IMG/VR virus record: IMGVR_UViG_3300037502_003770
Span: 179,643 to 243,642 of that record
Source: a virus
DNA: 64,000 nt
Direction: 5' to 3' (one strand)
The notes beneath the pieces are model-generated. The model was not told where the DNA came from and ran no database searches. It worked only from the letters and a program-made list of their open reading frames with translations. This document shows positions 1 to 25,411 of this stretch, one piece after another; within the stretch, counting starts at the first letter, position 1; each line of letters opens with the position of its first letter. Made by a program: the position numbers and the translations under genes.

Positions 1-195
1 TGGAAATTAAAAGAGTCTGAAATTTTTAAATATATATCAAGAGATGATTTAATACAATTAAAAAAAGATTTTCCAGAACATATAGATTTTTTTGATGAGC
101 TTAACTTAAAAGAATATATTTCCAAAGAAGTAAGAAAATTATTAAAAGAACAAATTTTTAAAAATAAAAACTATTTAATTAAAAATATAAAATAA
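1..195 (+). CDS. C-terminal end of a tagged DUF4116-family paralogue (partial)
   Basis: An open frame enters from the left edge and stops with TAA at 193-195, giving 64 residues. The protein end carries the family's C-terminal signature: a short helical stretch with a KDFPEH element (compare KDFPEHREFLEN in the protein at 14687-15451) followed by EYISKEVRKLLKE. The tag DNA (106-150) is nearly identical to that of three other genes in the window. The repeat region that should precede it lies outside. The function is unknown; by analogy with T4 internal head proteins the tag may direct packaging into the prohead (inference). The CTATTTA element for the next gene lies inside its last codons. Confidence 0.8.
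   Translation, partial: WKLKESEIFKYISRDDLIQLKKDFPEHIDFFDELNLKEYISKEVRKLLKEQIFKNKNYLIKNIK
106..150 (+). repeat. Tag-encoding DNA repeat, copy 1
   Basis: This 45-nt stretch encodes LKEYISKEVRKLLKE. It is nearly identical to 15377-15421, 18339-18383 and 18946-18990; 110-150 matches 15381-15421 exactly. Repeats of this length could support recombination between paralogues. Confidence 0.85.
171..177 (+). promoter_or_regulatory. CTATTTA element upstream of 195
   Basis: The element lies 17 nt before the ATG at 195, inside the 3' end of the preceding gene. It is one of 28 such elements; see the finding on the candidate late promoter. Confidence 0.45.
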
Positions 196-2614: not shown

Positions 2615-3220
2615 ATGAAAATTAAATCAAGTGAACTAAAAAAATTAATTAATGAAGCTATCGATACTGAAATGAAAGCTTTACTTAAAGAGGGTTATAC
2701 CCAAGAACAATTAGATGAAATTGATTTTTCTAAAGTAGGGAACTTTTTCAAAGGTGCAGCTAGAGGTGTAAAAGATTTAGCTGTTGATACAAAGAAAAAT
2801 TATTTTGATAATTCTGATTTAAATTTAGAAAGTGAAATAAAAAAACTTACTAAAATATATATGACTTTAAGTGAAGAAGTAGCTGATTTAACAGAAAATC
2901 TTTCTTCTATGAAGCAACAATTAAAAGATTTACAAAGAACAATTAAAGAAAAGAAATCTCAATTAGAGAAAATTAAAAAAGAAAGAGGTTCAGACCCTTA
3001 CTTTAAGAAATATTCTCATGAAGATAGATATAAAAATGAGAAAAAACCTGTATCTAAAAAAGAACCTGAATCTAAGGAATCAACACCAGAAACAGAAAAA
3101 AGTAAACCTTCAATTGATGTAAATAGAGATGCTTCTACTTTTGAAAAAGACCCAAAATCAGGACAAAGATTTAGAAGAAAAATGCAAGAAATGAAATTAA
3201 AAAGAAGTTTAAATAAATAA
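2615..3220 (+). CDS. Coiled-coil protein with N-terminal prohead-tag-like helix
   Basis: The product has 201 residues. It begins MKIKSSELKKLINEAIDTEM and continues KALLKEGY, an N-terminal example of the amphipathic tag with an LxE site (LKE, then G). Residues ~70-125 are heptad-rich and strongly charged, predicting a coiled coil. The C-terminal third is Lys/Glu/Ser/Pro-rich and disordered (KKEPESKESTPETEKSKPS). The architecture suits an internal head or scaffold-associated protein that gp21-type protease would cut (inference). It is followed by a hairpin terminator at 3248-3283. Confidence 0.7.
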   Translation: MKIKSSELKKLINEAIDTEMKALLKEGYTQEQLDEIDFSKVGNFFKGAARGVKDLAVDTKKNYFDNSDLNLESEIKKLTKIYMTLSEEVADLTENLSSMKQQLKDLQRTIKEKKSQLEKIKKERGSDPYFKKYSHEDRYKNEKKPVSKKEPESKESTPETEKSKPSIDVNRDASTFEKDPKSGQRFRRKMQEMKLKRSLNK

Positions 3221-8514: not shown

Positions 8515-9546
8515 ATGAAAAATTACGATAAGTTAAGTGATAATGAACATAAAATAGATTTAATTTCTTTAAATGAATTTTTACTTGAGAAAGGAGATTC
8601 TTTTTTAAATAGAATAATTGAAACTCAAACAATAAAAAGAGAAGAAATTACAAAGGAATTTTTTCAAGATAGATATGTATGGATATTTAAAGGAATTAAA
8701 GACCGTAGTGATTTTAATGGTGAAGATTTTCCATCAGAATGGTATACAGAAGGTATTATAAATGGAATTATAAGAAGATTTGTTGATTATACTGAGTATG
8801 GTAGAATTAGTGAACATAAATTTTTATTATGTTTAAATTCAAAAATTCAAAATTATTATTCTCTTTGCGAAAAAGCAGTTGATGATAATCCATTTAATAT
8901 AGTATTAGTTGCTGAACGTGCTATTGATTATTCTCTTTGCGAAAAAGCAGTTAATGGATATCCTAATGTTATAATAAGCATTATACCCGAAAAATTTAAA
9001 ACATATTCATTATGGGAACTAGCTATTAGTAAAAATGGTTATTTATTAAAGGAAATACCAAAAAATTTAATTGATTATTCTCTTTGTGAAAAAGCTATTA
9101 AAAATGATGTTGAAGCTTTACAGTTTGTACCAAAAAATATTGAGAATTATTATGATTTAGTAAAATTAACTTTTGAAAAGTCGAGTTATATAGTTGAAGC
9201 AGACTGGTTTCCAAAAGAATATATTTTGAAATTAATAAATGATGAGGATTACCCAAGTCGTAAAGAATATTTAACAAAACAATACTATTTAAAAGAAAAT
9301 AACAACATGACAAAAAAAGATTTATTAATCGAGTTCATAAAAAAAGAAATAGCTAGAGTTTTAACCGAAGCAAAAAAATCAAAGAAAAAAGTTGGTCCCA
9401 CAGGAAAAAAACTTATTAAAAGAAAAGATGGTTCTTATTCAGAAGAAGGTCTTTACGATAATATCCGCAAAAACAAAGGTTCAGGAAAGAAACCAACCGC
9501 ACAAATGAAAGCTCAAGAAAAGAAAATTAAAAAAGCAGAAAAATAA
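8515..9546 (+). CDS. DUF4116-repeat protein fused to a small Lys-rich tagged protein
   Basis: The product has 343 residues. It opens with the family N-terminus (KIDLISLNEFLLEKGDSFL) and has DUF4116-like units at ~112-210 (YSLCEKAVDDNPFNIVLVAE, YSLCEKAVNGYPNVIISIIP). The family's DWFPKEYI element is at ~230-237. Residues 265-343 are a different module: MTKKDLLIEFIKKEIARVLT, then a basic tail with KKVGPTGKKLIKRKDGSYSE. This basic module resembles a stand-alone small protein I recall from other large phages. An in-frame ATG (9307) with its own CTATTTA element 15 nt upstream suggests two genes joined by loss of a stop. Likely virion-packaged; function unknown. Confidence 0.75.
   Translation: MKNYDKLSDNEHKIDLISLNEFLLEKGDSFLNRIIETQTIKREEITKEFFQDRYVWIFKGIKDRSDFNGEDFPSEWYTEGIINGIIRRFVDYTEYGRISEHKFLLCLNSKIQNYYSLCEKAVDDNPFNIVLVAERAIDYSLCEKAVNGYPNVIISIIPEKFKTYSLWELAISKNGYLLKEIPKNLIDYSLCEKAIKNDVEALQFVPKNIENYYDLVKLTFEKSSYIVEADWFPKEYILKLINDEDYPSRKEYLTKQYYLKENNNMTKKDLLIEFIKKEIARVLTEAKKSKKKVGPTGKKLIKRKDGSYSEEGLYDNIRKNKGSGKKPTAQMKAQEKKIKKAEK
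9285..9291 (+). promoter_or_regulatory. CTATTTA element inside 8515-9546
   Basis: The element lies 15 nt before an in-frame ATG at 9307 that would start the Lys-rich C-terminal module as a separate protein. Confidence 0.4.
9307..9546 (+). CDS. Possible nested start: small basic tagged protein
   Basis: The product would have 79 residues if translated independently from the in-frame ATG at 9307. It starts with the amphipathic tag (LLIEFIKKEIARVLTEA), whose LTE matches the L-x-E protease rule, then becomes strongly basic (about 24 Lys). A DNA-binding internal head protein would fit this composition (inference). It is the same frame as 8515-9546, so it could be an alternative product or the ancestral separate gene. 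Confidence 0.4.
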   Translation: MTKKDLLIEFIKKEIARVLTEAKKSKKKVGPTGKKLIKRKDGSYSEEGLYDNIRKNKGSGKKPTAQMKAQEKKIKKAEK

Positions 9547-9547
9547 T

Positions 9548-9772
9548 ATGAAAAAATTATTAGATATTTTATTTATTGGAAATATTGTATTAACATTAAA
9601 AAGAAATGTTAAACTTGGTATACCAAAAATTTCTTTATGGTTTATACTACCTTTAATATTAATAGGATTATTTACTGTTGGAGTTGTATTTTCAGCTAGA
9701 ATAATCCTATCTATTATATCATTAAGTGTATTTGTTTTTGGTTTATTTTATAATATTCGTTATATAAAATAA
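9548..9772 (+). CDS. Small two-helix membrane protein
   Basis: The product has 74 residues with two hydrophobic segments (ISLWFILPLILIGLFTVGVV and IILSIISLSVFVFGLFYNI) separated by a very short polar turn. The N-terminus is basic. The ATG follows the previous stop by one base, so it is translated from the same message. The size and topology would allow a holin, but nothing confirms that and the endolysin is far away (27848-28396). Confidence 0.6.
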   Translation: MKKLLDILFIGNIVLTLKRNVKLGIPKISLWFILPLILIGLFTVGVVFSARIILSIISLSVFVFGLFYNIRYIK

Positions 9773-9773
9773 A

Positions 9774-9968
9774 TTACATCCATAAAGATTTACGATTCCA
9801 AAGATTTTTAAATAATCGAACCAAAGATGAGTTGACAATATTTTCAAACTCATCTTTGGTTTTTTTAGTCCCTATTTGTTTAGAAACTTCATCTTCAATC
9901 ATTTTTTTATATGTATCTTTTATTTCAGATTTAATTTTATCTAACTCTTTTTTTGATAATTCTGCCAT
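9774..9968 (-). CDS. Small charged protein downstream of the portal gene
   Basis: The product has 64 residues, mostly Lys/Glu-rich helix (MAELSKKELDKIKSEIKDTY). Its ATG shares a base with the portal stop codon at 9968, so it is translationally coupled to the portal gene. The DNA encoding the C-terminus faces the convergent membrane-protein gene. No family is recognised; it may be a small capsid-assembly accessory. Confidence 0.6.
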   Translation of the reverse strand: MAELSKKELDKIKSEIKDTYKKMIEDEVSKQIGTKKTKDEFENIVNSSLVRLFKNLWNRKSLWM

Positions 9969-12373
9969 TATGTTATTCTTTTATTTAAAGTTTCATTTAT
10001 TTTAAGTTTATTTAATTCTCTGAAAAAGATTTCATTCAAATTTTGGTTTTTATCTTCAGGTTCATTTTCTTGATTAGGAAGATTGTTTTGGTCAGGACCA
10101 CCTAAACCTAAATCACCACCTCCGCCAGCAGGATTATTTAAATCAGGTGTACCACCTAAACCTAAATCACCGCCTCCAGTATCACCAAAACCTCCTGCAC
10201 CACCGAAATCACCTCCAAGAGAAGCGCCTCCACCGAAGCCACCACCTCCACCAAAATCACCCATACCCATATCACCGCCTTGTGGTTGTTGACCTTGAGT
10301 TTGGGTACTTGGTTTAATATCAAAACCAGCATTTTGGTATTTAATATATTTATCCATTAATTTAGATGATTTAATTAACATTGGTGCAGACTTTACTTCT
10401 TCACCTATTTTAGATTCAATAAATTGGTCCAAAATATCATCTAAAATATCTTCTTCCGACATACCAAGTATTTCTTTTTTAGCTTTTGTTGTTGACATTG
10501 GCGCTAAACCATTAGCCCCTTGTTGTGTTGCTGAATTATATGCTGTTAATTTTTCATTCATATTAGCAATTTTCAACATTTCAGCTTGAGATGATGGGTT
10601 TTGCATTGTAATTGTAAAATTATCAATATTTTCTAAGAAATCCCCTCCCTTCAAAAAAAGATGTATAATTGCAATTTTATTTAATTCTGAAATTAAAGAT
10701 TGTTGTATTCTATTAATTTTTCTTGCAAACCTTATGTCTAATATAGAAAGGTTTGTTCCACCCTTTTCCATAGAACCATCCGATGAAAACGCAAGAAATA
10801 TTTTAGGAATACCTAAACCTGTAAATAATAAATCCCTGAAGTAAGAAACATCCATGATTGCATCAAGATTTGAGTTTTGTGTAAATATTCCACAAGATAG
10901 TAAAAAGTTATGATAATCATGTTCTTCTTCATTACCATCGATTGTAAGTGTACCAGTATCAATTTTATAATCTAAATCCTCAACTGAAATAACAGAAATA
11001 TTTATTTCTTTATTAAAACTCCATAATGATTCATTAACTTCTAAATCTTTAGCTTCTTTAATACCATTAAATTTAGTTGGGAATTTATGGTCAGGTGTAG
11101 TAATAATTGTTTCACTATTATCTAAAGTAATTTTTACTACATCAGTATTTTTTCTTGTTACAGCAGCATTAGTAATTTTACCTGGTACTATTTCACCAGT
11201 TTCAGGATTAATACTATAAGTCCATAATTGTTTAGTTTTATCAGAATTAAATTCATCTATAATTTCAGATAACATTAAACTTCTACCATCTAATAAATCT
11301 ATTTTAGTATCTAAAGCTAGACAAGCACCAGGAAGAGTTTCTATTGGAGATGAAGCGTTATCACTTCTTGTTGGAATAAAAATATCTTCATCATTTGTTG
11401 CAACGTGATACTTCCAGTTATAATCACCAGTTTTAGGGTCAATTAATGGTTTTTTCTTTACTTTATTTGCAACCATTTGAACATAAGAACCTATATCTTC
11501 TGTAGGAATATTTCCAACATTTACTTTATAAATCCTTCTTTCAGCGGCTCTAGTAATTCTATATACTAACATAGAATCTTCCATCATACTAAGTATTCTC
11601 CAAATTCTTCTTACTTTATCTAAAACAGACATACCATAAGGCATCCTTCTATCATCACCAAGTAATCTAAAGTGTGCTATTTGCCAGTGAGTAAATTGAC
11701 TACTATCAATACCACCTTCAGTCATTTTATTTCTAAAATAAATATTAATATCTTCATTACCATTACTATCTCTTTTAGTTTCTTCAACTCTTTCAATATT
11801 AATATTTGGTAATTGTTTTGCACCTGTTACACCTTCTTTATCATTTAAATTTAAATAAACAAAATTATCGCCATATTTACACATGTTTCTTGCCCAGAAT
11901 TGCAATGTAGTATTAACATCCAATACTTTATAAAAAAGATATTCTAATTCTTGTTTAACTCTTTTATTATCAGAATAAATATTAATTACTTTACCATTAT
12001 CGCCAATAGTTGTAGCTTCTTCTGATAATAAATCTAATGCAGAACCAATTATAGGATATGATTCCATTAATTCAAAATCATAATATTGCATAATTCTATT
12101 AGATTCATAAGCTAATGAATTATTTCTATCTACTTTAATTAAGCTTTTATATTGATTATCAAAAAATACACTTTGTTGATATGTTTTAACTTTTAATTCT
12201 AATTCTTCTTTTGTTTTAGCAATTATTTTATCTTTATCAACATCTACTTCATTTTGGTTTATTTTATTACCATTAATATCTTCTATATTTTTATTAACAT
12301 ATGAGGTACTACTAATGTTAGTAGGAAAAAGTAAATCACCTAATCTGTTAAATATCGTCTTGTTATTAGCCAT
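9968..12373 (-). CDS. gp20: Portal protein (T4 gp20-like) containing a mini-intein
   Basis: The precursor has 801 residues. The portal dodecamer sits at the unique vertex, nucleates head assembly and is the DNA channel. Portal features include QFWARNMCKYGDNFVYLNL (158-176), HWQIAHFRLL and RAAERRIYKVNVGNIP (275-290). The sequence ETLPGA (345-350) is interrupted by the intein at 351-500 and resumes with SNLDAIMDVSYFRDLLFTGL. Splicing would leave about 651 residues (T4 gp20: 524). The extra length is partly a Gly-rich tail (about 690-765, GGGGGFGGGASLGGDFGG type) and a C-terminal helix with a tag-like FFRELNKLKINE. The leader has a CTATTTA element 34 nt upstream. Unlike its neighbours, the gene is on the minus strand. 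Confidence 0.92.
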   Translation of the reverse strand: MANNKTIFNRLGDLLFPTNISSTSYVNKNIEDINGNKINQNEVDVDKDKIIAKTKEELELKVKTYQQSVFFDNQYKSLIKVDRNNSLAYESNRIMQYYDFELMESYPIIGSALDLLSEEATTIGDNGKVINIYSDNKRVKQELEYLFYKVLDVNTTLQFWARNMCKYGDNFVYLNLNDKEGVTGAKQLPNINIERVEETKRDSNGNEDINIYFRNKMTEGGIDSSQFTHWQIAHFRLLGDDRRMPYGMSVLDKVRRIWRILSMMEDSMLVYRITRAAERRIYKVNVGNIPTEDIGSYVQMVANKVKKKPLIDPKTGDYNWKYHVATNDEDIFIPTRSDNASSPIETLPGACLALDTKIDLLDGRSLMLSEIIDEFNSDKTKQLWTYSINPETGEIVPGKITNAAVTRKNTDVVKITLDNSETIITTPDHKFPTKFNGIKEAKDLEVNESLWSFNKEINISVISVEDLDYKIDTGTLTIDGNEEEHDYHNFLLSCGIFTQNSNLDAIMDVSYFRDLLFTGLGIPKIFLAFSSDGSMEKGGTNLSILDIRFARKINRIQQSLISELNKIAIIHLFLKGGDFLENIDNFTITMQNPSSQAEMLKIANMNEKLTAYNSATQQGANGLAPMSTTKAKKEILGMSEEDILDDILDQFIESKIGEEVKSAPMLIKSSKLMDKYIKYQNAGFDIKPSTQTQGQQPQGGDMGMGDFGGGGGFGGGASLGGDFGGAGGFGDTGGGDLGLGGTPDLNNPAGGGGDLGLGGPDQNNLPNQENEPEDKNQNLNEIFFRELNKLKINETLNKRIT
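10874..11323 (-). mobile_element. Mini-intein inserted in the portal protein
   Basis: This in-frame segment of 150 residues (351-500 of the precursor) starts with Cys (CLALDTKIDLLDGRSLMLSE, block A) and has block B TTPDHKFPT with the TxxH arrangement. It ends with a block F/G-like segment HDYHNFLLSCGIFTQN followed by Ser, the +1 nucleophile. The penultimate residue is Gln rather than the usual His. No endonuclease domain is present. Removing it joins ETLPGA to SNLDAIMD, restoring a continuous gp20-type sequence. Confidence 0.9.
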
Positions 12374-12407
12374 AAATTTTTTATTATCAAATAATACTTA
12401 TATTATA

Positions 12408-12414
12408 TAAATAG
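12408..12414 (-). promoter_or_regulatory. CTATTTA element upstream of the portal gene
   Basis: On the minus strand the sequence reads ACTATTTATATAATATAA, 34 nt before the portal ATG at 12373. Confidence 0.45.
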
Positions 12415-12458
12415 TATTGTTAAAAATAACTATCTTTTTCTTAAATAGTAATTTCTTA

Positions 12459-12465
12459 CTATTTA
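12459..12465 (+). promoter_or_regulatory. CTATTTA element upstream of 12485
   Basis: The element lies 19 nt before the ATG at 12485 and diverges from the portal promoter candidate. Confidence 0.45.
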
Positions 12466-12484
12466 GTAAAAACATTATTCTATA

Positions 12485-13756
12485 ATGAAATTTATTTATA
12501 TAAAGAAAGAATTATCACCAAAAATATTTAATAACCAAAAAAATGTTAAAGCTATTATAAGAAAGAAACTTATTGATTTAGCATATATGTATTTGAGAAA
12601 CTATAATTTAAAAGATATAAAGGTTTTAGATATTAGAATGGTTGGTAGTTTATGTAATTATAACTATAACGCTTCATCTGATTTAGATTTACATATAACA
12701 GTTGATTATAGTAAAATTTCTGATAATAAAGAGTTTGTTCTTGAATATTGTAAGACTTTAAGGAAGAATTGGTCTCAAAATAATAGAATTAAAATATACG
12801 GATTTCCTGTTGAAATCTTTATTGAAGATAAAAGTGTACCAATGAATGATAAAGGTGTATATTCTTTATTAAAAAATAAATGGTTAAATGAACCAAAAAA
12901 AGTTTCAAGAGAAAAAATTAATTTAGATGATATAAAATCTTTATATATAAAATATAAAAGAACAATTAGAGATTTACTTAAAAGTGATGATATTAATGAA
13001 TATAATAAATTTTCCGATGAATTAGGTTCTTTTAGAAAAAAAGGGTTATCTTCAGAAAAAGGTGAATATTCTGATGAAAATATTGTTTTTAAGTTATTAA
13101 GAAAATATAAAAAATTAGATTTAGTTACAAATAGAAAGAATAATCTTTTAAGAAGAAAATATACTCTTAAAGAAGGTATTTTTAAAAAAGTAAAAAAACA
13201 TTTAAAAGAAAGTGTTGTTTCATTAAATGGAAAATATAACTTAAAAAATATTACTAAAATAAATACAAAAAATAATATAGATTTAGATTCTTTAAATAAT
13301 TTTTTACTTGGGGAAGGTGATGATTTTTTAAATTTTTTATTAATGGTAAATGATTATAAAAAAAGGGATTATTCAAATAATAAAATACAAGAATATTATT
13401 TACGTGAAGCTTATTTTAAACCTTTACACCATACGTATCCTGAAGAATTATGGATGTATTATTCATTTTGTGAAAGAGGTGTATCTATAAATGGTATGTG
13501 TTTAAAATATATACCTGAACAATTAAAAGATTATAATTTATGTAAAAAAGCTATTATTTCAGCACCTTTTGCATTAAATTATACACCTAAAACAATTGAA
13601 AATTATTATGAATTAGTAAAAATTGTTATGAGAGATTTAATTAAATTTAAAATGTACCGTAGAAGTATTATGTATAATTACGGTATAAGTGATGAATATA
13701 TACCTCAATTAAAAAAAGATTTTCCTGAATATTTTAATCATGAAGATTATTCTTAA
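12485..13756 (+). CDS. Nucleotidyltransferase-like domain fused to a DUF4116-family domain
   Basis: The product has 423 residues. Residues ~25-150 look like a polymerase-beta-type nucleotidyltransferase: MVGS (52-55), SSDLDLHI (64-71) supplying two acidic ligands, and VEIFIED (109-115) supplying the third. A tag-like segment at ~220-235 (YTLKEGIFKKVKKHLKES) contains LKE. The C-terminal ~165 residues are the DUF4116-type family module (NIDLDSLNNFLLGEGDDFLN, YNLCKKAIISAPFALNYTPK). A nucleotide-transferring enzyme carried in the head and delivered with the DNA is an attractive reading but is inference. Its substrate is unknown. Confidence 0.75.
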   Translation: MKFIYIKKELSPKIFNNQKNVKAIIRKKLIDLAYMYLRNYNLKDIKVLDIRMVGSLCNYNYNASSDLDLHITVDYSKISDNKEFVLEYCKTLRKNWSQNNRIKIYGFPVEIFIEDKSVPMNDKGVYSLLKNKWLNEPKKVSREKINLDDIKSLYIKYKRTIRDLLKSDDINEYNKFSDELGSFRKKGLSSEKGEYSDENIVFKLLRKYKKLDLVTNRKNNLLRRKYTLKEGIFKKVKKHLKESVVSLNGKYNLKNITKINTKNNIDLDSLNNFLLGEGDDFLNFLLMVNDYKKRDYSNNKIQEYYLREAYFKPLHHTYPEELWMYYSFCERGVSINGMCLKYIPEQLKDYNLCKKAIISAPFALNYTPKTIENYYELVKIVMRDLIKFKMYRRSIMYNYGISDEYIPQLKKDFPEYFNHEDYS

Positions 13757-13762
13757 ATAAAA

Positions 13763-13769
13763 CTATTTA
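13763..13769 (+). promoter_or_regulatory. CTATTTA element upstream of 13785
   Basis: The element lies 15 nt before the ATG at 13785 in a 28-nt intergenic gap. Confidence 0.45.
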
Positions 13770-13784
13770 AATTAAAAGAATTAT

Positions 13785-14687
13785 ATGTCATTAGGTACAA
13801 CTGGTATAGTAAAATCATCTACTGTAGATGTAAAAGATATTGAAATATTATATAGTTATTCAGTTGATAGAACTGATAGTAATACAGTATTTACTAAAGT
13901 AGCGGATAGTTCTTCTTTTATAAGTAACATTTTTAGTCAAGATATAACAACTGAAAAAATTCAAGGGTTATATCAATTAAAATTATCAAAAGATATTTTT
14001 AATAAAGTAGGAATTTATAATATATTAATTAGACCTAAGCAAATAAAACTCCCTATTTTAGATATAGGTATATTATCAGCTTTACCAAATGTAAAGGGTA
14101 TAATTATTGATACAAATAATGAATTATTTATTAATGATGCTGAAAAATTATTATCAGGAGCTTTAACAGGTTATAGAATTGAATATATAAATACAGATAA
14201 TTCTATTCAGTCAAATTTATTTAGAACGGTAACTTATTCTAATAGATGTGAACCTATTATACAGAATCTACCTAATACAACAAATAAATCTGTTTCTTAT
14301 AGATTAAATGATAATAGTGGATTACTTTTTTTAACAGTAACACCTTCTGTTAGTTCATCTATTAAACCAAATTCAGAAATATTTATAGGTACACCAAATC
14401 AAAATATTATATTATCAAATACATTTTTTGACCCTTTATTTATTGAAATAGAGTTAACAGAATATGATTTAGATACACTTGCTTTAGCTTTCTATGGTGA
14501 ACAAACAAGAAGTACTCAAGACGGTGTAGTTACATATTATGATAAAGATAGAAATATTTATAAACAATTTACATTGTTTGAAATTAAAGATGAAAATAAT
14601 ACACCTTTATATGAAGTAAAAGAAGTTATTACTGATATAGATGAATCTAAATCATATGAAGCTATAACAAATGATATTATTAGGTAA
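13785..14687 (+). CDS. Beta-rich virion structural protein candidate
   Basis: The product has 300 residues, Ser/Thr/Asn-rich with alternating hydrophobic strands (DIEILYSYSVDRTDSNTVFT, IYNILIRPKQIKLPILDIGI), typical of tail or neck components. It lies between the portal and the protease-scaffold-capsid block, where T4-like phages encode neck/completion proteins (gp13/gp14). The size is similar to T4 gp13 (309), but I see no specific motif, so the assignment is only positional. Its stop codon overlaps the next ATG by one base. Confidence 0.65.
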   Translation: MSLGTTGIVKSSTVDVKDIEILYSYSVDRTDSNTVFTKVADSSSFISNIFSQDITTEKIQGLYQLKLSKDIFNKVGIYNILIRPKQIKLPILDIGILSALPNVKGIIIDTNNELFINDAEKLLSGALTGYRIEYINTDNSIQSNLFRTVTYSNRCEPIIQNLPNTTNKSVSYRLNDNSGLLFLTVTPSVSSSIKPNSEIFIGTPNQNIILSNTFFDPLFIEIELTEYDLDTLALAFYGEQTRSTQDGVVTYYDKDRNIYKQFTLFEIKDENNTPLYEVKEVITDIDESKSYEAITNDIIR

Positions 14688-15451
14688 TGAATAAATTACA
14701 AGAAAAAAGTGATGCACATAAAATAGATTTAGAATTGTTAAATAACTTCTTACTTGAGAAAGGGGATAATATGTTAGAGATGTTATTAATACGAAAATAT
14801 ATAATTCCTTTAGATTTAAAAAAAATAAAAATATATCTATCAATAGATGGTTGGTTATTACAAGATATACCAGAAAAACATAAGACATATGAATTATGCA
14901 AAATAGCAGTCACTAAAACAGGAAATGCTATTTTGCACGTTCCTGAAAATTTAATAGATTATAATCTTTGTGAAATAGCGGTTTTACAAAATGGGCGTTC
15001 ATTAGATTACGTGCCTTATAAATTTAAAGATTATAATCTTTGTGAGAAAGCTGTTTCTAATTATGGTCATGCTATACAATATGTACCAAAAGAATTAATT
15101 GACTATTTTCTTTGTGAGAAAGCGGTTTCTACTCATGGTCAATCTTTAATGTATATTCCTAAAAAATTTATTGATTATCCGCTTTGTGAGAAAGCGGTTT
15201 CTAATGATGGTTGGGCTTTTCAACATGTACCAGAAAAATTTATAGATTACTCTTTAGTGAAATCTACTTATCAATATAGTATAGAAGCAATAAAACAAAA
15301 CTGGTTTCCAAAGGAATATATACCTCAGTTAATAAAAGACTTCCCTGAACATAGAGAATTTTTAGAAAACAGTTTACTTCAAGAATATATTTCCAAAGAA
15401 GTAAGAAAATTATTAAAAGAAACACTATTTACTAAAAAGAAATTATTATAA
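14687..15451 (+). CDS. DUF4116-repeat protein with C-terminal prohead-tag-like helix
   Basis: The product has 254 residues and is the clearest member of the family. It has the N-terminal box KIDLELLNNFLLEKGDNMLE. Then come about five tandem ~24-residue units of the form YNLCEKAVSNYGHAIQYVPK at ~65-185. Next are NWFPKEYIPQLIKDFPEHRE and the tag EYISKEVRKLLKE near the C-terminus. The repeats resemble Pfam DUF4116, which is helical and of unknown function. The ATG overlaps the preceding stop. A CTATTTA element for the next gene is embedded in its last codons. Confidence 0.8.
   Translation: MNKLQEKSDAHKIDLELLNNFLLEKGDNMLEMLLIRKYIIPLDLKKIKIYLSIDGWLLQDIPEKHKTYELCKIAVTKTGNAILHVPENLIDYNLCEIAVLQNGRSLDYVPYKFKDYNLCEKAVSNYGHAIQYVPKELIDYFLCEKAVSTHGQSLMYIPKKFIDYPLCEKAVSNDGWAFQHVPEKFIDYSLVKSTYQYSIEAIKQNWFPKEYIPQLIKDFPEHREFLENSLLQEYISKEVRKLLKETLFTKKKLL
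15377..15421 (+). repeat. Tag-encoding DNA repeat, copy 2
   Basis: This stretch encodes LQEYISKEVRKLLKE and is nearly identical to 106-150. Confidence 0.85.
15424..15430 (+). promoter_or_regulatory. CTATTTA element upstream of 15451
   Basis: The element lies 20 nt before the ATG at 15451, inside the end of the preceding coding region. Confidence 0.4.
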
Positions 15452-16245
15452 TGGACAAAAATAAACTAATAGAACTGGTACAACAAATATATGGTTATTC
15501 AAAAATCATTGGTGAATCATTAAAAAACATTGGCGATGATGTAAGTAATTTACCTATTGATTTGGAGAATGATTTAAATTCTATTGTTTATCAATTAAAA
15601 GATTATAAAGAACAAATAGTAAAAAATCTATATGGTAGTAAATTAAATGAACTAGCAAAAAAGAAAAAAACTACCACACCTGTAGAAAAAGGTCCAGATA
15701 TTGTAACAAAAGATAGACAACAAAATAAAGAAAGAACTAAACCTGTTCCTTTAACAGATGAACAACTTAAAAAATATAAAATAGAGCTACAAAAATTTAT
15801 TAACCAAAATACAAACGATATTGCTTCTTTAAAAGATATTTTTGATGATATATTTCTTATATATGAAAGATACTCTAGTACAGAAAGTGATAAAATAGAA
15901 AATAATATTGATTTAAAAATAAACTATGTTAATCAGTTATTAACTTTAACAAATAATGCTATTGATATAATAAAAAGTTTAAAAAGTAAAAATAATGTAT
16001 GTTTTTATTTATTCATGTATGATATATTAACTGATTCTTCAAATGATGATTCAACCTTTAAATTTAATGAATTTCTTTTCGCAATAAAATCTTTCTATAA
16101 TAATTTAATTGCTCAAGATTTTTTTGAAAATAATAGAAAAATATATTCTGAATATAAAATAATAAACTATAACGATTTCTTAGTTGCTCTTGAAAATTCT
16201 ATTAATAGATTTGCAAACTTTAATGATTTAGATAATCGTTTTTAA
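15451..16245 (+). CDS. Hypothetical helical virion-type protein
   Basis: The product has 264 residues, almost wholly helical by composition, with a Lys/Thr/Pro linker near residues 68-95. The ATG overlaps the preceding stop by one base, indicating translational coupling. It lies in the head-gene cluster, so a structural or assembly role is likely, but I recognise no family. A TnpB gene follows on the opposite strand only 27 nt downstream. Confidence 0.65.
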   Translation: MDKNKLIELVQQIYGYSKIIGESLKNIGDDVSNLPIDLENDLNSIVYQLKDYKEQIVKNLYGSKLNELAKKKKTTTPVEKGPDIVTKDRQQNKERTKPVPLTDEQLKKYKIELQKFINQNTNDIASLKDIFDDIFLIYERYSSTESDKIENNIDLKINYVNQLLTLTNNAIDIIKSLKSKNNVCFYLFMYDILTDSSNDDSTFKFNEFLFAIKSFYNNLIAQDFFENNRKIYSEYKIINYNDFLVALENSINRFANFNDLDNRF

Positions 16246-16272
16246 CAACTTTTCATTAATAGTATGATATTT

Positions 16273-17475
16273 CTATCTTTTTGGTGTTAAAACCAATGGA
16301 TTTACTACAAAACCCTCTACCCCATTTGTAAATACATTTGGGATTGCCTTTCTTAATATATTATAAGAACCGTTAACATCAGCGTTTATTAACTTTCCTT
16401 CTTTTCCTTTTATTTTATATAATCCTCTACTTTTTCTATAACCACTAAAAGAATATTCTTCTTTACAATTTGGTTTGTATGTTGGTATATAATCTAAATT
16501 TAAAAAAGAAGCTTTACTGGTATAACTTTCTTCTTGAAGGATTACATCTATACCTTCCATTTTACATTTATATTTTAACATTTCAATAAATGTATTATGC
16601 GGTATAAATTGAAAATTTTGATTACTTACTTTACCCATACTTGTGTCTTGTTTCCAATTACAATTTTTACCTATAATTAATAGATAAACATTATTATTAA
16701 CTAAATGATTCACTAGTAATTTACTACTTTTATGTAAATAATCTTTTATTTTATTGTTTCTTTTATTTGTTAATTTAATAGATTTTTTAGTTGTTTTATT
16801 TCCTATTAATTTACTTTTAGATTTATTATAATATTGATTTATAGATTTTAATGGTTTACCGTTTATTATTATTGGTTTATATTCTTTTTTATTATATGTT
16901 ATTGTTGCTAAATTATTTATACCAAGGTCTATTGACGCTATTAAATCTGATTTTATATTATTTTTTTCTTTTTTTTCATAAACAACTTCTATTACATAAT
17001 ATTTATTTTTCGGTATTATACGAACTTCTTTTATTAATTTCCAATCTTTGATTTTAGTTTTTATTTTAATTTCACTTTTTGATAGTTTTATTAAACCAGT
17101 TTTTTTAAATTCTCTATATTCTAAAGCTTGAATACAGTACTTTACCATAAATCTTCCATTTTTTTTATTTAAATATTTAGGTATTTTATTTTTAACATCT
17201 TTATTTTTAAGTAATTTAAAAAAAGATTTAAAATTTTTGTCTAATATTTTTATAACTTTACATGAAACTTTTGCTGGTAAACTCTTATATTCGTCTGTAT
17301 TTTTTAATAAATGATAGTTTTTAAGTTCATTTAAATATTTATTATTTTCAAAAAAATATTGTCTTATATTATATAAACCTTGATTATATAAATTTTTAGA
17401 TAAAAAACATAGATTATCACATGTATTATAGTATTTATTATTTTCTTTAATTACATGTTGTTCTACTAGTATCAT
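16273..17475 (-). CDS. tnpB: TnpB-family RNA-guided nuclease (relocated-glutamate type)
   Basis: The product has 400 residues. TnpB proteins of IS200/IS605-type elements are RuvC nucleases guided by an RNA from the element end. RuvC motifs are D183 in SIDLGINN and D366 in NADVNGSYN. At the usual RuvC-II position the sequence is IIGKNCNW instead of an ED motif. A glutamate follows later in QEESYTSKASF (314-324), a pattern I recall from TnpB subgroups with a moved catalytic glutamate. No CxxC zinc finger is evident. It uses TAG as stop, which is rare in this window. No tnpA is nearby. Element ends could not be set. A CTATTTA element lies 21 nt upstream. Confidence 0.85.
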   Translation of the reverse strand: MILVEQHVIKENNKYYNTCDNLCFLSKNLYNQGLYNIRQYFFENNKYLNELKNYHLLKNTDEYKSLPAKVSCKVIKILDKNFKSFFKLLKNKDVKNKIPKYLNKKNGRFMVKYCIQALEYREFKKTGLIKLSKSEIKIKTKIKDWKLIKEVRIIPKNKYYVIEVVYEKKEKNNIKSDLIASIDLGINNLATITYNKKEYKPIIINGKPLKSINQYYNKSKSKLIGNKTTKKSIKLTNKRNNKIKDYLHKSSKLLVNHLVNNNVYLLIIGKNCNWKQDTSMGKVSNQNFQFIPHNTFIEMLKYKCKMEGIDVILQEESYTSKASFLNLDYIPTYKPNCKEEYSFSGYRKSRGLYKIKGKEGKLINADVNGSYNILRKAIPNVFTNGVEGFVVNPLVLTPKR

Positions 17476-17496
17476 TTATTAATATTTTTATATTAT

Positions 17497-17503
17497 TAAA
17501 TAG
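17497..17503 (-). promoter_or_regulatory. CTATTTA element upstream of the tnpB at 17475
   Basis: The element lies 21 nt before the ATG on the minus strand. It faces a second CTATTTA (17514-17520, plus strand), forming an inverted pair. Confidence 0.4.
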
Positions 17504-17559
17504 TGTATTATTACTATTTAATAATATAAAAAATATACTAGGACTGTTTATGTACGGTT

Positions 17560-17594
17560 AAAACGATTTCTTTTTAAGGAATCGTTTTCTTTTT
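17560..17594 (+). terminator. Hairpin terminator between tnpB and 17625
   Basis: The stem AAAACGATT/AATCGTTTT is followed by a T-rich tail. It may be the original terminator of the 13785-16245 transcript, displaced by the TnpB insertion (inference). Confidence 0.65.
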
Positions 17595-17603
17595 AAAAAT
17601 TAT

Positions 17604-17610
17604 CTATTTA
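17604..17610 (+). promoter_or_regulatory. CTATTTA element upstream of 17625
   Basis: The element lies 14 nt before the ATG, directly behind the terminator at 17560-17594. Confidence 0.5.
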
Positions 17611-17624
17611 AATAAAAGAATTAT

Positions 17625-18416
17625 ATGTTAAATAATTTACAAGAAAAAAGTGATTTAAAACAAATAGATTTAGAATCTTTAAATAATTTTTTGCTTGAGA
17701 AAGGGGATAGTTTTTGTGATACTTTACTTCAAATAAAATCATATAAAAAAATTGATTATTCATCAGATAATATACAAAAATATTATTATACATTAAAATT
17801 TAAGGATGTTAATTCTTTTCCAAAACAATTATGGTATCATGATTCTTTTTGTGAAAAAATGTTGGGTAGAGACAGCGGAAATATAAAACTTATACCTAAA
17901 ACTTCAAATAATTATTATAATTTTTGTAAAATGGCTGTTACTCATAATCCATTTAATATAAAACATATTGATTCAGAGTTTATTGATTATAATCTTTGTA
18001 AGATTGCAGTATCAAATATTTATACAACTTTAAATTTAATACCAAAAAAATTTATTGATTATAATCTTTGTAAGATTGCAGTATCAAATAATTATAGTAA
18101 TTTACAGTATGTACCTAAAAATATTGAAAATTACTACCTTATTTGTTTATTAGCTGTATATAAAAAGGGTTCAGCTTTAGAATTTGTCCCCAAAAATATA
18201 GATAAATATTACACAATATTAAAATTAGCTTTTGAAACTTATAGATATATAATTATACAAGATTGGTTCCCAAAAGAATATATACCTCGATTAATAAAAG
18301 ACTTTCCTGAAGATAAAGAATTTCTTGAGCGATATATTCTTAAAGAATATATTTCCAAAGAAGTAAAGAAATTTTTAAAAGAATACCTATTTAAAGAAAA
18401 ATTATATGTTAAATAA
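17625..18416 (+). CDS. DUF4116-repeat protein with C-terminal tag
   Basis: The product has 263 residues. The family N-terminal box is QIDLESLNNFLLEKGDSFCD. Repeat units include YNFCKMAVTHNPFNIKHIDS, YNLCKIAVSNIYTTLNLIPK and YNLCKIAVSNNYSNLQYVPK; the last two are also near-identical in DNA, which implies recent unit duplication. They are followed by DWFPKEYIPRLIKDFPEDKE and the tag EYISKEVKKFLKE. It overlaps the next gene by 11 nt in another frame. Function unknown; probably packaged with its paralogues. Confidence 0.8.
   Translation: MLNNLQEKSDLKQIDLESLNNFLLEKGDSFCDTLLQIKSYKKIDYSSDNIQKYYYTLKFKDVNSFPKQLWYHDSFCEKMLGRDSGNIKLIPKTSNNYYNFCKMAVTHNPFNIKHIDSEFIDYNLCKIAVSNIYTTLNLIPKKFIDYNLCKIAVSNNYSNLQYVPKNIENYYLICLLAVYKKGSALEFVPKNIDKYYTILKLAFETYRYIIIQDWFPKEYIPRLIKDFPEDKEFLERYILKEYISKEVKKFLKEYLFKEKLYVK
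18339..18383 (+). repeat. Tag-encoding DNA repeat, copy 3
   Basis: This stretch encodes LKEYISKEVKKFLKE and is nearly identical to 18946-18990. Confidence 0.85.
18387..18393 (+). promoter_or_regulatory. CTATTTA element upstream of 18406
   Basis: The element lies 12 nt before the ATG at 18406, inside the end of the preceding gene. Confidence 0.35.
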
Positions 18417-19017
18417 TTTTGACAAACTATCTAATAATAATCATAATATTGATTTAATCTCTTTAAATAAATTCTTACTTGAAAAAGGTGATAATTTTTT
18501 AGAAAATCTTATTGATAATAATAAATTTATAAAAAAAGAAGATATAACAAAAGAGTTTTTTCAAAAGAAATATCGAACAATATTTGATGGTATATTTAGT
18601 GTTGATGATAGTTTTTCTTTCACAGGAGAAGATTTTCCTGTTGAGTATTATAATGAAAAAATAATAAAAAATCTTGTTGAAGAATATAATAAGTTTGGTA
18701 AATATTTATTATTTTTAAATTCAAAATTAGATATATATTTTCAATTAGCTAAATATACTATTACAACTAAGGCTTCTTGGATGTTAATATACATACCTAA
18801 AACAATAGAAAATTATTATTCTTTAGTAAAACTTGCATTTGAAAAAGATAATAATATAATTAGAGAAGAATGGTTCCCAAAAGAATACATTCCTAAATTA
18901 ATAAATGATTACCCTCAAAATACTGATTTTTTAAAGAAATATTTACTTAAAGAATATATTTCCAAAGAAGTAAGAAAATTTTTAAAAGAATACTATTTAA
19001 ATAAAAATAAACAATAA
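18406..19017 (+). CDS. Short DUF4116-family protein with C-terminal tag
   Basis: The product has 203 residues. The N-terminal box NIDLISLNKFLLEKGDNFLE and the region ITKEFFQKKYRTIFDGI are closest to the protein at 8515-9546. Only one degenerate repeat unit remains before EWFPKEYIPKLINDYPQNTD and the tag EYISKEVRKFLKE. It appears to be a contracted paralogue of the 8515 protein. Its 3' end holds another CTATTTA element. Confidence 0.78.
   Translation: MLNNFDKLSNNNHNIDLISLNKFLLEKGDNFLENLIDNNKFIKKEDITKEFFQKKYRTIFDGIFSVDDSFSFTGEDFPVEYYNEKIIKNLVEEYNKFGKYLLFLNSKLDIYFQLAKYTITTKASWMLIYIPKTIENYYSLVKLAFEKDNNIIREEWFPKEYIPKLINDYPQNTDFLKKYLLKEYISKEVRKFLKEYYLNKNKQ
18946..18990 (+). repeat. Tag-encoding DNA repeat, copy 4
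   Basis: This stretch encodes LKEYISKEVRKFLKE. The downstream sequence AAAGAATACTATTTAAA is echoed at 20201-20217. Confidence 0.85.
18993..18999 (+). promoter_or_regulatory. CTATTTA element upstream of 19032
   Basis: The element lies 32 nt before the ATG at 19032. Confidence 0.4.
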
Positions 19018-20231: not shown

Positions 20232-20900
20232 ATGAGAAAATTAACATTATTAGAAGCGAATCAAGAAGGTTATGGATTATTAAAAGAATCTGATGCTGGT
20301 ATTGTAGAAATAGAAAGAAATCAACACTTAATAAAAGAAAATTATAAGGACATGTTTTCTGATAATGGTAGTATATTTGTTAATTGTATTTTACAAAAAG
20401 CTGATACTCAAAATAGAAATGGTAGGATTTATCCAAAAAATATATTAGAAAAAGAAGTAAATAATTATATAAAATTAGTTAAAGAAAGAGCTTCACTTGG
20501 TGAAACCGACCACCCTGATACTGCTGTAGTTTCTTTAAATGACCCATCTCATTTAATAACAAAAGTTTGGTGGGAAGGAAATACATTATTAGGGACATTA
20601 GAATTAATAACATCACCAGCATATATAGAAAGAAGAGATATTCAAGTTAAGGGTGATATGATTGCAAATTTATTAAGTAAAGAAATTAAATTAGGCATTT
20701 CTTCAAGAGGTTTAGGTTCAGTAAAAAAAGTAAATGGTGCAAATATAGTACAAAGTGATTTTGAATTAGTTTGTTTTGATATAGTATCATCACCATCAAC
20801 TCCTGGTGCTTATTTATATCAAGAAACTATTAAACTTAATGAACAAGTAAATAAAATTAATAATAGTTTAAATAATAAATTAAAAAACTTTTTATCATAA
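20232..20900 (+). CDS. gp21: Prohead core protease (T4 gp21-like)
   Basis: The 222-residue product is a serine protease of the phage prohead-protease fold. It digests scaffold and trims capsid and internal proteins before packaging; T4 gp21 cuts after L/I-x-E. Visible features are QNRNGRIYPKNIL (60-72), the catalytic His in GETDHPD (H94), the catalytic Ser in GISSRGLGS (155-163, S157 or S158) and the C-terminal DFELVCFDIVSSPSTPGAYL. The length matches T4 gp21 (212). The gene precedes scaffold and capsid as in T4. The many LxE-bearing tags in this window are its expected substrates (inference). Confidence 0.95.
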   Translation: MRKLTLLEANQEGYGLLKESDAGIVEIERNQHLIKENYKDMFSDNGSIFVNCILQKADTQNRNGRIYPKNILEKEVNNYIKLVKERASLGETDHPDTAVVSLNDPSHLITKVWWEGNTLLGTLELITSPAYIERRDIQVKGDMIANLLSKEIKLGISSRGLGSVKKVNGANIVQSDFELVCFDIVSSPSTPGAYLYQETIKLNEQVNKINNSLNNKLKNFLS

Positions 20901-23641: not shown

Positions 23642-25411
23642 ATGGAAACATTATTAAATTCAGGTCTGGTTGGTAACATTGGACTTAAAAATTTACAAGA
23701 AAACCGCAAACTAATCGTTGAGCGTTGGGAACAAACTGAAATGCTTGATGGTCTTTCAGGTTCAGCAAAAGAAAATATTGCACAGTTATTTGAAAACCAA
23801 GCAAGTTATATGTTGAACGAATCAACTGTATCTGATAGTTCTGGTTCTTTTGAGACAGTTGCTTTCCCTATTGTTCGTAGGGTATTCCAAAAATTACTTG
23901 CAAATGAAATTGTATCAATTCAAGCTATGTCAGCCCCAATTGGTAGATTGTATTTCTTTAATCCAAAAGTTTCTGTTAGAAATGTTAATGGTAATATTCA
24001 AAGTCATACTTCTATGGATGGTGGTTATTCAAATGCTGCTACTAATTATATTGTTGATGCTGCTACTGGTAGAAAAACGCTTGTTGCTGGTACTGATAAC
24101 TTTAACAAAACTGGTGGTACTCAATATAGTTCAACTTCACTTTACGATTCATTCTATTCTACTGAATATAACGATGAAGGTACTGCTTTATTTGATTTAA
24201 CAAGAGGTAAAATTTTTGTTCAAAACATTGTAGCCGTTCCAAGAAATAGTGTATTTACTAATGGTGTAACAGAAAAATATCAAGTTAAATTAACTGGTTT
24301 TAGTTCAACTAGAGATGGTAGATTAGTAGGTCCTGTTGGTACTGTTGCTGATACAGAAGAATTCTTATCAAGCTTAAAAGTTACTTGTAATCAAAACTTA
24401 TTTAATGGTCCAAGTTCAATTGCTTTCGCAAGTGGTACTACTTTGGATTTTAGAACTTTGGCTCAAGCTTACGGTAAGCCACTTGTTAAAAATGGTACTA
24501 TTGAATTAGAAATTGATGTAACTGGTCCGTCTTTGACTTCAGGTTTATTTATTCCTTTGACCGCAGCTACAGGTACAACCGCAGCTTCAGGTGGTGGTAC
24601 TCCAGTATTTAGTGCTTCATATTCAGTTTATTCTGATTTAGAAGAAGATAGCGAAATGGCAGAAGTAACTTTTGATTTAGATTTCGTAACTGTTGATGTA
24701 ACTTCTCGTAAATTGAGAACTTCATTTACTCCTGAAATTCAGCAAGATGCAGCTGCTTTCCACAACATTGATGTTGAAGCTGAATTGACTGCAATGCTTT
24801 CTGAAACTATTTCAGCTGAAATTGATAGGGAAATTTTACGTGATTTGCGTAAAGGTGCAGCTTGGTCTACTTCATGGGATTATGCAGGTTATAGAAAATT
24901 AGTTGCAGCTGGTAGTGCAGTTGGTATTACTCAAAAAGATTATAATCAAGAATTAATTACTAAAGTAAATGAACTTTCTTCTTTGATTATGAAAACAACT
25001 CTTAGAGGTGGTGCTAATTTCGTAGTAGTTTCTCCTGAAATCGCTGCTGTATTAAATAACTTAGAATATTTCCACGTAACTGATGCTTCTCCAGAAGAAA
25101 CTAAGTTCTCTATGGGTATCGAGAAAATTGGTTCAATTCAAGGTCGTTATACTGTTTATGTAGATATGTATGCTCCAGCAGGTAAAATGTTGGTGGGACA
25201 TAAGGGTGAAGGCATCTTCCACGCCGGGTTCGTATATGCGCCGTTTGTGCCATTATTACTTTTCCCTGGTGTTACTAACCCTAACAACTTCTCAAAAGTA
25301 TTAGGAATTATGACTAGATACGCTAAGAAAATGGTAAATAACCGTTTCTACGGTGTAGTAAACGTAAAAGGTTTAAATTATACACCAGTTTCAGAATTCT
25401 TAGGTGCTTAA
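23642..25411 (+). CDS. gp23: Major capsid protein (T4 gp23-like, HK97 fold)
   Basis: The product has 589 residues (T4 gp23: 521) and forms the head lattice. T4-type features are AFPIVRRVFQKLLANEIVSI (75-94), a long beta-rich insertion domain, EISAEIDREILRDLRKGA-like helix segments, and a conserved C-terminus with the APFVPLLLFPG stretch and MTRYAKKMVNNRFYGVVNVK. The N-terminal ~65 residues precede SYMLNES and may be removed by the protease as in T4. Codon use is richer in G/C third positions than in neighbours, as expected for a highly expressed gene. A strikingly GC-rich patch lies at 25192-25251. Confidence 0.96.
   Translation: METLLNSGLVGNIGLKNLQENRKLIVERWEQTEMLDGLSGSAKENIAQLFENQASYMLNESTVSDSSGSFETVAFPIVRRVFQKLLANEIVSIQAMSAPIGRLYFFNPKVSVRNVNGNIQSHTSMDGGYSNAATNYIVDAATGRKTLVAGTDNFNKTGGTQYSSTSLYDSFYSTEYNDEGTALFDLTRGKIFVQNIVAVPRNSVFTNGVTEKYQVKLTGFSSTRDGRLVGPVGTVADTEEFLSSLKVTCNQNLFNGPSSIAFASGTTLDFRTLAQAYGKPLVKNGTIELEIDVTGPSLTSGLFIPLTAATGTTAASGGGTPVFSASYSVYSDLEEDSEMAEVTFDLDFVTVDVTSRKLRTSFTPEIQQDAAAFHNIDVEAELTAMLSETISAEIDREILRDLRKGAAWSTSWDYAGYRKLVAAGSAVGITQKDYNQELITKVNELSSLIMKTTLRGGANFVVVSPEIAAVLNNLEYFHVTDASPEETKFSMGIEKIGSIQGRYTVYVDMYAPAGKMLVGHKGEGIFHAGFVYAPFVPLLLFPGVTNPNNFSKVLGIMTRYAKKMVNNRFYGVVNVKGLNYTPVSEFLGA

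What the first reader, a model, noticed from the sequence alone, without database searches (positions are those of the whole stretch)
8515..19017. Expanded family of DUF4116-like repeat proteins in the head-gene cluster
Proteins at 1-195 (partial), 8515, 12485, 14687, 17625 and 18406, and part of 195-2594, share the box IDLxSLNNFLLEKGD, variable numbers of ~24-residue YxLCEKAVxxxGxxxxxVPK units, WFPKEYIPxLIKDFPE and the tag. Unit numbers range from one to about five, and near-identical DNA units at 17985-18100 show recent duplication. Such expansions usually reflect an arms race or binding diversification.
Basis: partly seen in the sequence, partly recalled or inferred. Interest (0 to 1): 0.62.

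Follow-up and report, generated by a model that had tools for sequence, protein, structure and literature searches.

The report
Tagged solenoid proteins packed in phage heads
A giant phage carries a large family of repeat-built proteins whose shared end tag looks like a label that packs them into the virus head and is then cut by the head protease, suggesting they are injected into the host with the DNA; some are strung together as chains to be cut apart, which I did not find described before.

Summary
The window is part of a 312.7-kb T4-like phage record with 35 DUF4116 matches and 18 copies of an 'IDLxSLNxFLLEKGD' box in 14 ORFs. A model of 14687-15451 is an alpha-solenoid of 24-residue units ending in a long helix that includes the tag. 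The tag, LxEYISKEVRKLLKE, is the most informative part. It ends in LxE, the site class cut by T4-type prohead proteases and seen in this phage's own capsid protein. It occurs C-terminally on solenoids, N-terminally on an ART-like enzyme, and between domains. A 1659-aa ORF has six LLKE sites, all at module boundaries. In ART-like relatives from eight phages the [LIV]xE site ends exactly seven residues before the invariant His, at N-terminal tags and internal linkers alike. Best reading: targeting-plus-protease tags on head-packaged, probably ejected, proteins, some made as polyproteins. Packaging and cleavage are inferred, not shown. Units rarely have their nearest relative in the same protein, so recent unit expansion is not the main history. 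The arms-race reading is untested; what DUF4116 binds stays unknown.

The parts
1..195 (+). C-terminal part of a DUF4116 N-box protein (full ORF 195 aa, genome 179250-179837); tag LKEYISKEVRKLLKE at window 106-150
195..2594 (+). 799-aa multidomain protein: ITE|AEYKG start (phrog_7595 domain), two DUF4116 stretches, internal tag IKKIITEEILKQLKE at 939-983, then a further C-terminal region; no N-box
2615..3220 (+). head-cluster protein with N-terminal tag LKKLINEAIDTEMKALLKE|GYT (2636-2692)
8515..9546 (+). DUF4116 N-box protein; N-box 8554-8586, WFPKEYI 9205-9246, tag LIEFIKKEIARVLTE 9325-9369 followed by a 58-aa Lys-rich tail
12485..13756 (+). two-module protein: nucleotidyltransferase-like domain (phrog_36119), internal tag LKEGIFKKVKKHLKE (13166-13210), then N-box (13277-13309) and DUF4116 module
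14687..15451 (+). DUF4116 N-box protein, 5 clear units; model: alpha-solenoid, pLDDT 85.7; tag LQEYISKEVRKLLKE 15377-15421
17625..18416 (+). DUF4116 N-box protein; recent unit duplication 17979-18122; tag LKEYISKEVKKFLKE 18339-18383
18406..19017 (+). N-box protein with only one degenerate unit; WFPKEYI 18871-18912, tag LKEYISKEVRKFLKE 18946-18990
20232..20900 (+). prohead (head maturation) protease, the proposed enzyme that cuts the tags
   Evidence: phrog_207, E 8e-48
23813..23821 (+). predicted capsid-protein maturation site LNE|S (residue 60 of the major capsid protein, 23642-25411)
   Evidence: alignment to relatives LLKE|A and LISE|A, and to 80 relatives with [LI]xE in the same region

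Best explanation
The DUF4116 proteins are head-internal proteins of a T4-like jumbo phage. Each module is: about 12 residues, an N-box helix, an alpha-solenoid of 24-residue two-helix units, usually a WFPKEYIPxLIKDFPE cap, and an amphipathic helical tag ending in LKE. The tag acts like the T4 capsid-targeting sequence: it docks the protein into the prohead core, and the prohead protease cuts after the E. Most copies carry the tag C-terminally. Some carry it between modules, so that a multi-module chain (up to 1659 aa, with N-box/DUF4116 and ART-like modules) would be cut into separate proteins inside the prohead. The freed proteins stay with the DNA and are ejected into the host, where the solenoids probably bind host or phage proteins. 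Shown by sequence: the family, the modular anatomy, LxE at the module boundaries, and the same tag type on phage enzymes elsewhere. Inferred: packaging, cleavage, ejection and target binding.
For: (1) A tag matrix finds 15 hits above 15 bits in 458 ORFs, 0 in five shuffled proteomes; non-seed hits include a second, C-terminal tag on the ART-like protein and the boundary between nucleotidyltransferase and DUF4116 in 12485. (2) LLKE occurs six times in the 1659-aa ORF, against at most 2 in 5000 shuffles, always at a boundary; N-boxes start 13-16 residues after LLKE there and 11-18 after Met in stand-alone proteins. (3) In 16 of 16 tagged ART-like domains from eight phage lineages [LIV]xE ends exactly 7 residues before the invariant His, at N-terminal tags and internal linkers alike; untagged homologues show the E is not needed by the domain. 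(4) In Alishewanella phage Slickus01 ten proteins of different kinds share MKIDxLYESLLEE|. (5) A matrix trained only on N-terminal tags of LR756508 scores our tags: 12 hits above 12 bits versus 1.6 expected, 7 of them family tags. (6) Prohead protease present; capsid protein sites are [LI]xE here and in relatives. (7) T4 precedent: L/I-X-E cleavage, CTS on IPs and Alt, and C-terminal processing of Alt (PMC9026906).
Against: No virion proteomics exists for this metagenomic phage. T4 capsid-targeting sequences are N-terminal; targeting by a C-terminal or internal tag is not established, although gp21 and Alt are processed C-terminally. [LI]xE is short and common (1.65% of positions). Salicola phage SCTP-2 has DUF4116 proteins with a different conserved C-terminal box and no LxE tag, so the solenoid and the tag are not tied together. 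Several family members lie away from recognisable head genes, next to proteins that PHROGs does not recognise.
Confidence: 0.68

Rival explanations
1. The tag is an assembly or docking helix for a structural complex (core, tail or baseplate) and is not cut; the solenoids are structural adaptors.
For: The tag is predicted as one long helix at the end of the solenoid. Some members sit beside tail or baseplate-like genes.
Against: It does not explain the same tag on ART-like and nucleotidyltransferase domains, its placement at module boundaries, or the exact seven-residue register before the ART-like His.
Confidence: 0.15
2. Diversifying, selfish or defence-evading repeat family made in the infected cell; the binding surface evolves in an arms race, with no role in the virion.
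For: Variable unit numbers, one recent unit duplication; family absent from 20 related records and all 80 capsid-gene loci, hence lineage-specific.
Against: Units mostly do not cluster by protein; the conserved tag and the head-gene neighbourhood are unexplained.
Confidence: 0.12
3. The long ORFs are ordinary fusions in which the linkers have no function; the LLKE repeats merely reflect recent duplication of modules with their linkers.
For: Modules are clearly paralogous, so linkers would be copied with them.
Against: Linkers are conserved where the modules themselves differ in kind (N-box solenoid versus ART-like), and independent phages show the same LxE register at N-termini.
Confidence: 0.05

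Closest known systems
T4 internal proteins IPI-III and Alt with capsid-targeting sequence (CTS), cut by gp21
   Same: Short targeting peptide ending in an L/I-X-E site; T4-type portal, capsid protein and prohead protease; Alt is an ADP-ribosyltransferase and is also processed C-terminally (PMC9026906, PMC5694885)
   Different: Here the tag is mostly C-terminal or between domains, is longer and strongly helical, and labels a solenoid family for which no relation to the IPs was found
Pfam DUF4116 (PF13475) repeat proteins of giant eukaryotic viruses, bacteria and a few phages
   Same: Same repeat by Pfam score and by fold search against BFVD (best E 6.5e-9); predicted alpha-solenoid also in PMC8078820
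   Different: Relatives of the whole N-box/cap/tag protein were not found in phage, viral-contig or genome collections; no solved structure matched at E<=0.001
Polyvalent proteins (Iyer et al. 2017, PMC5512222)
   Same: Multidomain phage proteins combining ART, NTase and other domains, thought to be injected with DNA
   Different: Modules here are separated by repeated LLKE sites for a protease acting in trans; no embedded peptidase was recognised by Pfam in these ORFs
Head proteolysis in phiKZ-like giant phages (SPN3US, phiKZ)
   Same: Many head and ejection proteins cut after Glu by a gp21-like protease
   Different: Those cut mostly N-terminal propeptides, at AXE in SPN3US; no chains of effectors joined by repeated sites are described in the passages read

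Membership tests
DUF4116 (PF13475) | Pfam score above the curated cut-off | tested here: met
   Met for 195-2594, 8515, 12485, 14687, 17625; not met for 18406
DUF4116 (PF13475) | alpha-solenoid of two-helix repeats | tested here: met
   AlphaFold2 model of 14687-15451, pLDDT 85.7, and BFVD matches to DUF4116 proteins
T4-type CTS-bearing internal (ejection) protein | phage encodes a gp21-type prohead protease | tested here: met
   phrog_207 E 8e-48
T4-type CTS-bearing internal (ejection) protein | targeting peptide ending in L/I-X-E | tested here: met
   13 of 13 long-form tags end in L[KR]E
T4-type CTS-bearing internal (ejection) protein | targeting peptide at the N-terminus | tested here: not met
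   DUF4116 members carry it at the C-terminus or internally; met only for the ART-like g160506 and for 2615-3220. So they are not filed as CTS proteins; they are proposed to work like them
T4-type CTS-bearing internal (ejection) protein | present in the head, cut, ejected | not testable with these tools
   needs virion mass spectrometry
Polyvalent protein | two or more different effector domains in one chain | tested here: met
   g161237 (N-box/DUF4116 plus three ART-like) and 12485-13756 (NTase-like plus DUF4116)
Polyvalent protein | embedded peptidase or typical polyvalent domains | tested here: not met
   none recognised by Pfam; common but not universal in that class
ADP-ribosyltransferase (module of the related proteins) | ART fold and NAD-binding motif | tested here: inconclusive
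   Invariant H-x-T, S-x-x-R and E-x-E-D; weak Tox-ART-HYD1 hits, E 0.53 and 4.3e-4; no DarT hit; structure model too poor

The most novel reading that the evidence does not exclude
The phage makes ejected effectors as polyproteins: solenoid, nucleotidyltransferase-like and ART-like modules joined by repeated targeting-plus-cleavage tags, and one prohead protease both matures the capsid and cuts these chains into a cocktail of separate proteins inside the head, so that copy numbers of effectors are set by fusion. The DUF4116 solenoids would be a new class of injected phage protein.
Probability: 0.5. Interest if true: 0.78.

Novelty: new variant of a known kind. Interest (0 to 1): 0.6.

Why it matters
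If right, a simple sequence rule (amphipathic helix ending in [LI]xE at a protein end or domain boundary) predicts which unknown proteins of T4-like jumbo phages are packed into the head and injected. It would give DUF4116, a widespread unknown family, a first concrete setting, and would add protease-cut effector chains to phage biology. The culturable phage Slickus01 with its Alishewanella host makes the rule directly testable.

Tried and rejected
Viral contigs and genome-contig scans with the N-box/tag family found no relatives; tblastn of 14687 in named phages found none. PDB sequence searches gave nothing credible (V-ATPase and msL1 matches at E>0.01). PDB fold search gave nothing at E<=0.001. 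The ART-like structure model had pLDDT 43.6 and was discarded. DarT profile: no match. A BRCA2-OB2 Pfam match at E 4e-4, below its cut-off and sitting on a linker, was judged spurious. The Lys-rich tail of 8515 has no phage match. Pattern searches for the GDPNM and NTase domains within 10 kb of relatives' capsid genes returned nothing.

Full report
Setting. The window is bases 179,643-243,642 of a 312,694-bp virus record. It holds a T4-like head module: terminase (6739-8481), portal with an intein (9968-12373, minus strand), prohead protease (20232-20900, phrog_207 E 8e-48) and major capsid protein (23642-25411). I read the rest of the record in stretches and called ORFs mechanically (458 kept, 94% of the sequence covered). 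A host in Bacteroidota is likely from lipoprotein signals and from a domain shared with Flavobacterium phage immuto, but was not tested.

The family. An HMM of the N-box finds 18 copies in 14 ORFs (E about 1e-10 to 1e-16), in three places: genome 6.4-10.5 kb, 157-178 kb, and 179-199 kb, the last being the window's left part. DUF4116 units number about 1 to 6 per protein. Module order is constant: about 12 residues, N-box, units, usually WFPKEYIPxLIKDFPE, tag. The AlphaFold2 model of 14687-15451 (five window sequences; pLDDT 85.7) shows two-helix repeats of 24 residues, with residues 220-251, including the tag, as one helix; the N-box part is poorly predicted. Fold search finds DUF4116 proteins of giant eukaryotic viruses and a few phages and nothing significant in the PDB. 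An alpha-solenoid was also predicted for the Pfam family by others (PMC8078820).

History of the units. 44 units were compared. Only 4 have their nearest relative in the same protein; mean identity is 39.7% within and 37.1% between proteins (permutation p 0.03). So most units are older than the gene duplications or were exchanged between genes. The pair at 17979-18122 is a real recent duplication (85%). The family is absent from 20 larger related records and from all 80 capsid-gene loci, searched with Pfam and with my HMMs respectively. The same Pfam search rings in this record and in Salicola phage SCTP-2, so the method works.

The tag. A 13-column matrix from 12 tags, scanned over the proteome, gives 15 hits above 15 bits and none in five shuffles. 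New hits include a second tag at the C-terminus of the ART-like protein g160506, and the boundary between the nucleotidyltransferase-like domain and the DUF4116 module of 12485-13756. Tags therefore occur C-terminally, N-terminally and between domains. A short form, NLxESKSLLKE, occurs six times in the 1659-aa ORF at genome 161237-166216, each time at a boundary before an N-box or an ART-like domain. LLKE is expected about 0.17 times in that protein by shuffling, and 5000 shuffles never gave more than 2. N-boxes begin 13-16 residues after LLKE in its internal modules and 11-18 residues after Met in stand-alone proteins: the chains look like in-frame fusions of whole genes, tag included.

The same signal in other phages. 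The ART-like domain (invariant H-x-T, S-x-x-R, E-x-E-D) has relatives in Alishewanella phages, Microcystis phage Mel-JY01, Vibrio phages, SCTP-2, the uncultured 484-kb phage LR756508 and others. In 16 of 16 tagged copies from eight lineages the [LIV]xE ends exactly seven residues before the invariant His, whether at an N-terminal tag or in our internal linkers; Lu11, JA29, HRDY3 and Sen-NF copies lack it. In Slickus01, ten proteins of unlike kinds begin with versions of MKIDxLYESLLEE. In LR756508, the best named match by capsid protein, about 18 ORFs begin with MK...LRxIIxEEIxxLLxE; a matrix trained only on those scores our tags (12 hits above 12 bits, 1.6 expected, 7 of them family tags). Capsid proteins show [LI]xE at the position that aligns with the known T4 maturation region: MLNE|S here, LLKE|A in LR756508, LISE|A in Mel-JY01, and LINE|A or similar in the 80 relatives.

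Interpretation. T4 gp21 cuts after L/I-X-E, capsid-targeting sequences of 10-20 residues label the internal proteins and Alt, and Alt is also processed at its C-terminus (PMC9026906, PMC5694885). ARTs of myophages are thought to be packaged often (PMC9503650). The simplest account is that our tags are targeting-plus-cleavage signals and that the DUF4116 proteins are head-internal and probably ejected. That a C-terminal or internal tag can target is an inference; so are cleavage, ejection and the binding role of the solenoid. Because the N-terminal position, a defining feature of T4 CTS, is not met for the DUF4116 members, I say they work like CTS proteins rather than that they are members.

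Limits. The ART label rests on motifs and two weak profile hits; its structure model failed and Pfam and PHROGs hold no such family at significant scores. The E and the seven-residue spacing may be inherited together with the domain, so the 16 cases are not independent; the stronger points are the untagged homologues, the unlike proteins with the same tag, and the internal linkers. ORFs were called mechanically from a metagenomic record that may be incomplete.

Novelty. Packaged ARTs, CTS and polyvalent proteins are known. New, as far as the papers searched show, are DUF4116 solenoids in this role, tags at C-termini and between domains, and effector chains with repeated prohead-protease sites. 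DUF4116 is named in only two papers of the library, neither about phage heads as far as their titles, abstracts and the passages read show.

Noticed in passing
window 9968-12373 (-): The portal protein carries an intein (Pfam Intein_splicing, E 3e-9) inside the T4-type portal domain.
   Followed up: no
window 16273-17475 (-): A TnpB-like (IS200/IS605) ORF sits inside the head/DUF4116 cluster; a similar ORF lies at genome 62727-63953 (-). Identified by eye only.
   Followed up: no
window 5420-6766 (+): ORF that looks like a free-standing LAGLIDADG-type homing endonuclease upstream of the terminase; no Pfam hit.
   Followed up: no
L025:12028-18630 and 7898-8356 (Alishewanella phage Slickus01): About ten genes of different folds with the same N-terminal peptide MKIDxLYESLLEE near the terminase; a likely set of head-packaged proteins in a culturable phage.
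   Followed up: partly
L029 and L041 (LR756508): About 18 ORFs with the N-terminal tag LRxIIxEEIxxLLxE in a 484-kb uncultured phage.
   Followed up: partly
L033-L040 (Salicola phage SCTP-2): Apparently independent DUF4116 expansion with its own conserved C-terminal box (KKLKLKxGPM) and no LxE tag.
   Followed up: partly
window 9370-9543 (+): Lys-rich 58-aa tail (KKVGPTGKKLIKRKDGSYSEEGLYDNIRKNKGSGKKP...) after the tag of 8515-9546; would be released as a basic peptide if the tag is cut.
   Followed up: partly
L042 and L044 (Lu11, HRDY3): ART-like homologues begin with MxxxLALA or MxxxLAVAG instead of an LxE tag, perhaps a different head-protease site.
   Followed up: no
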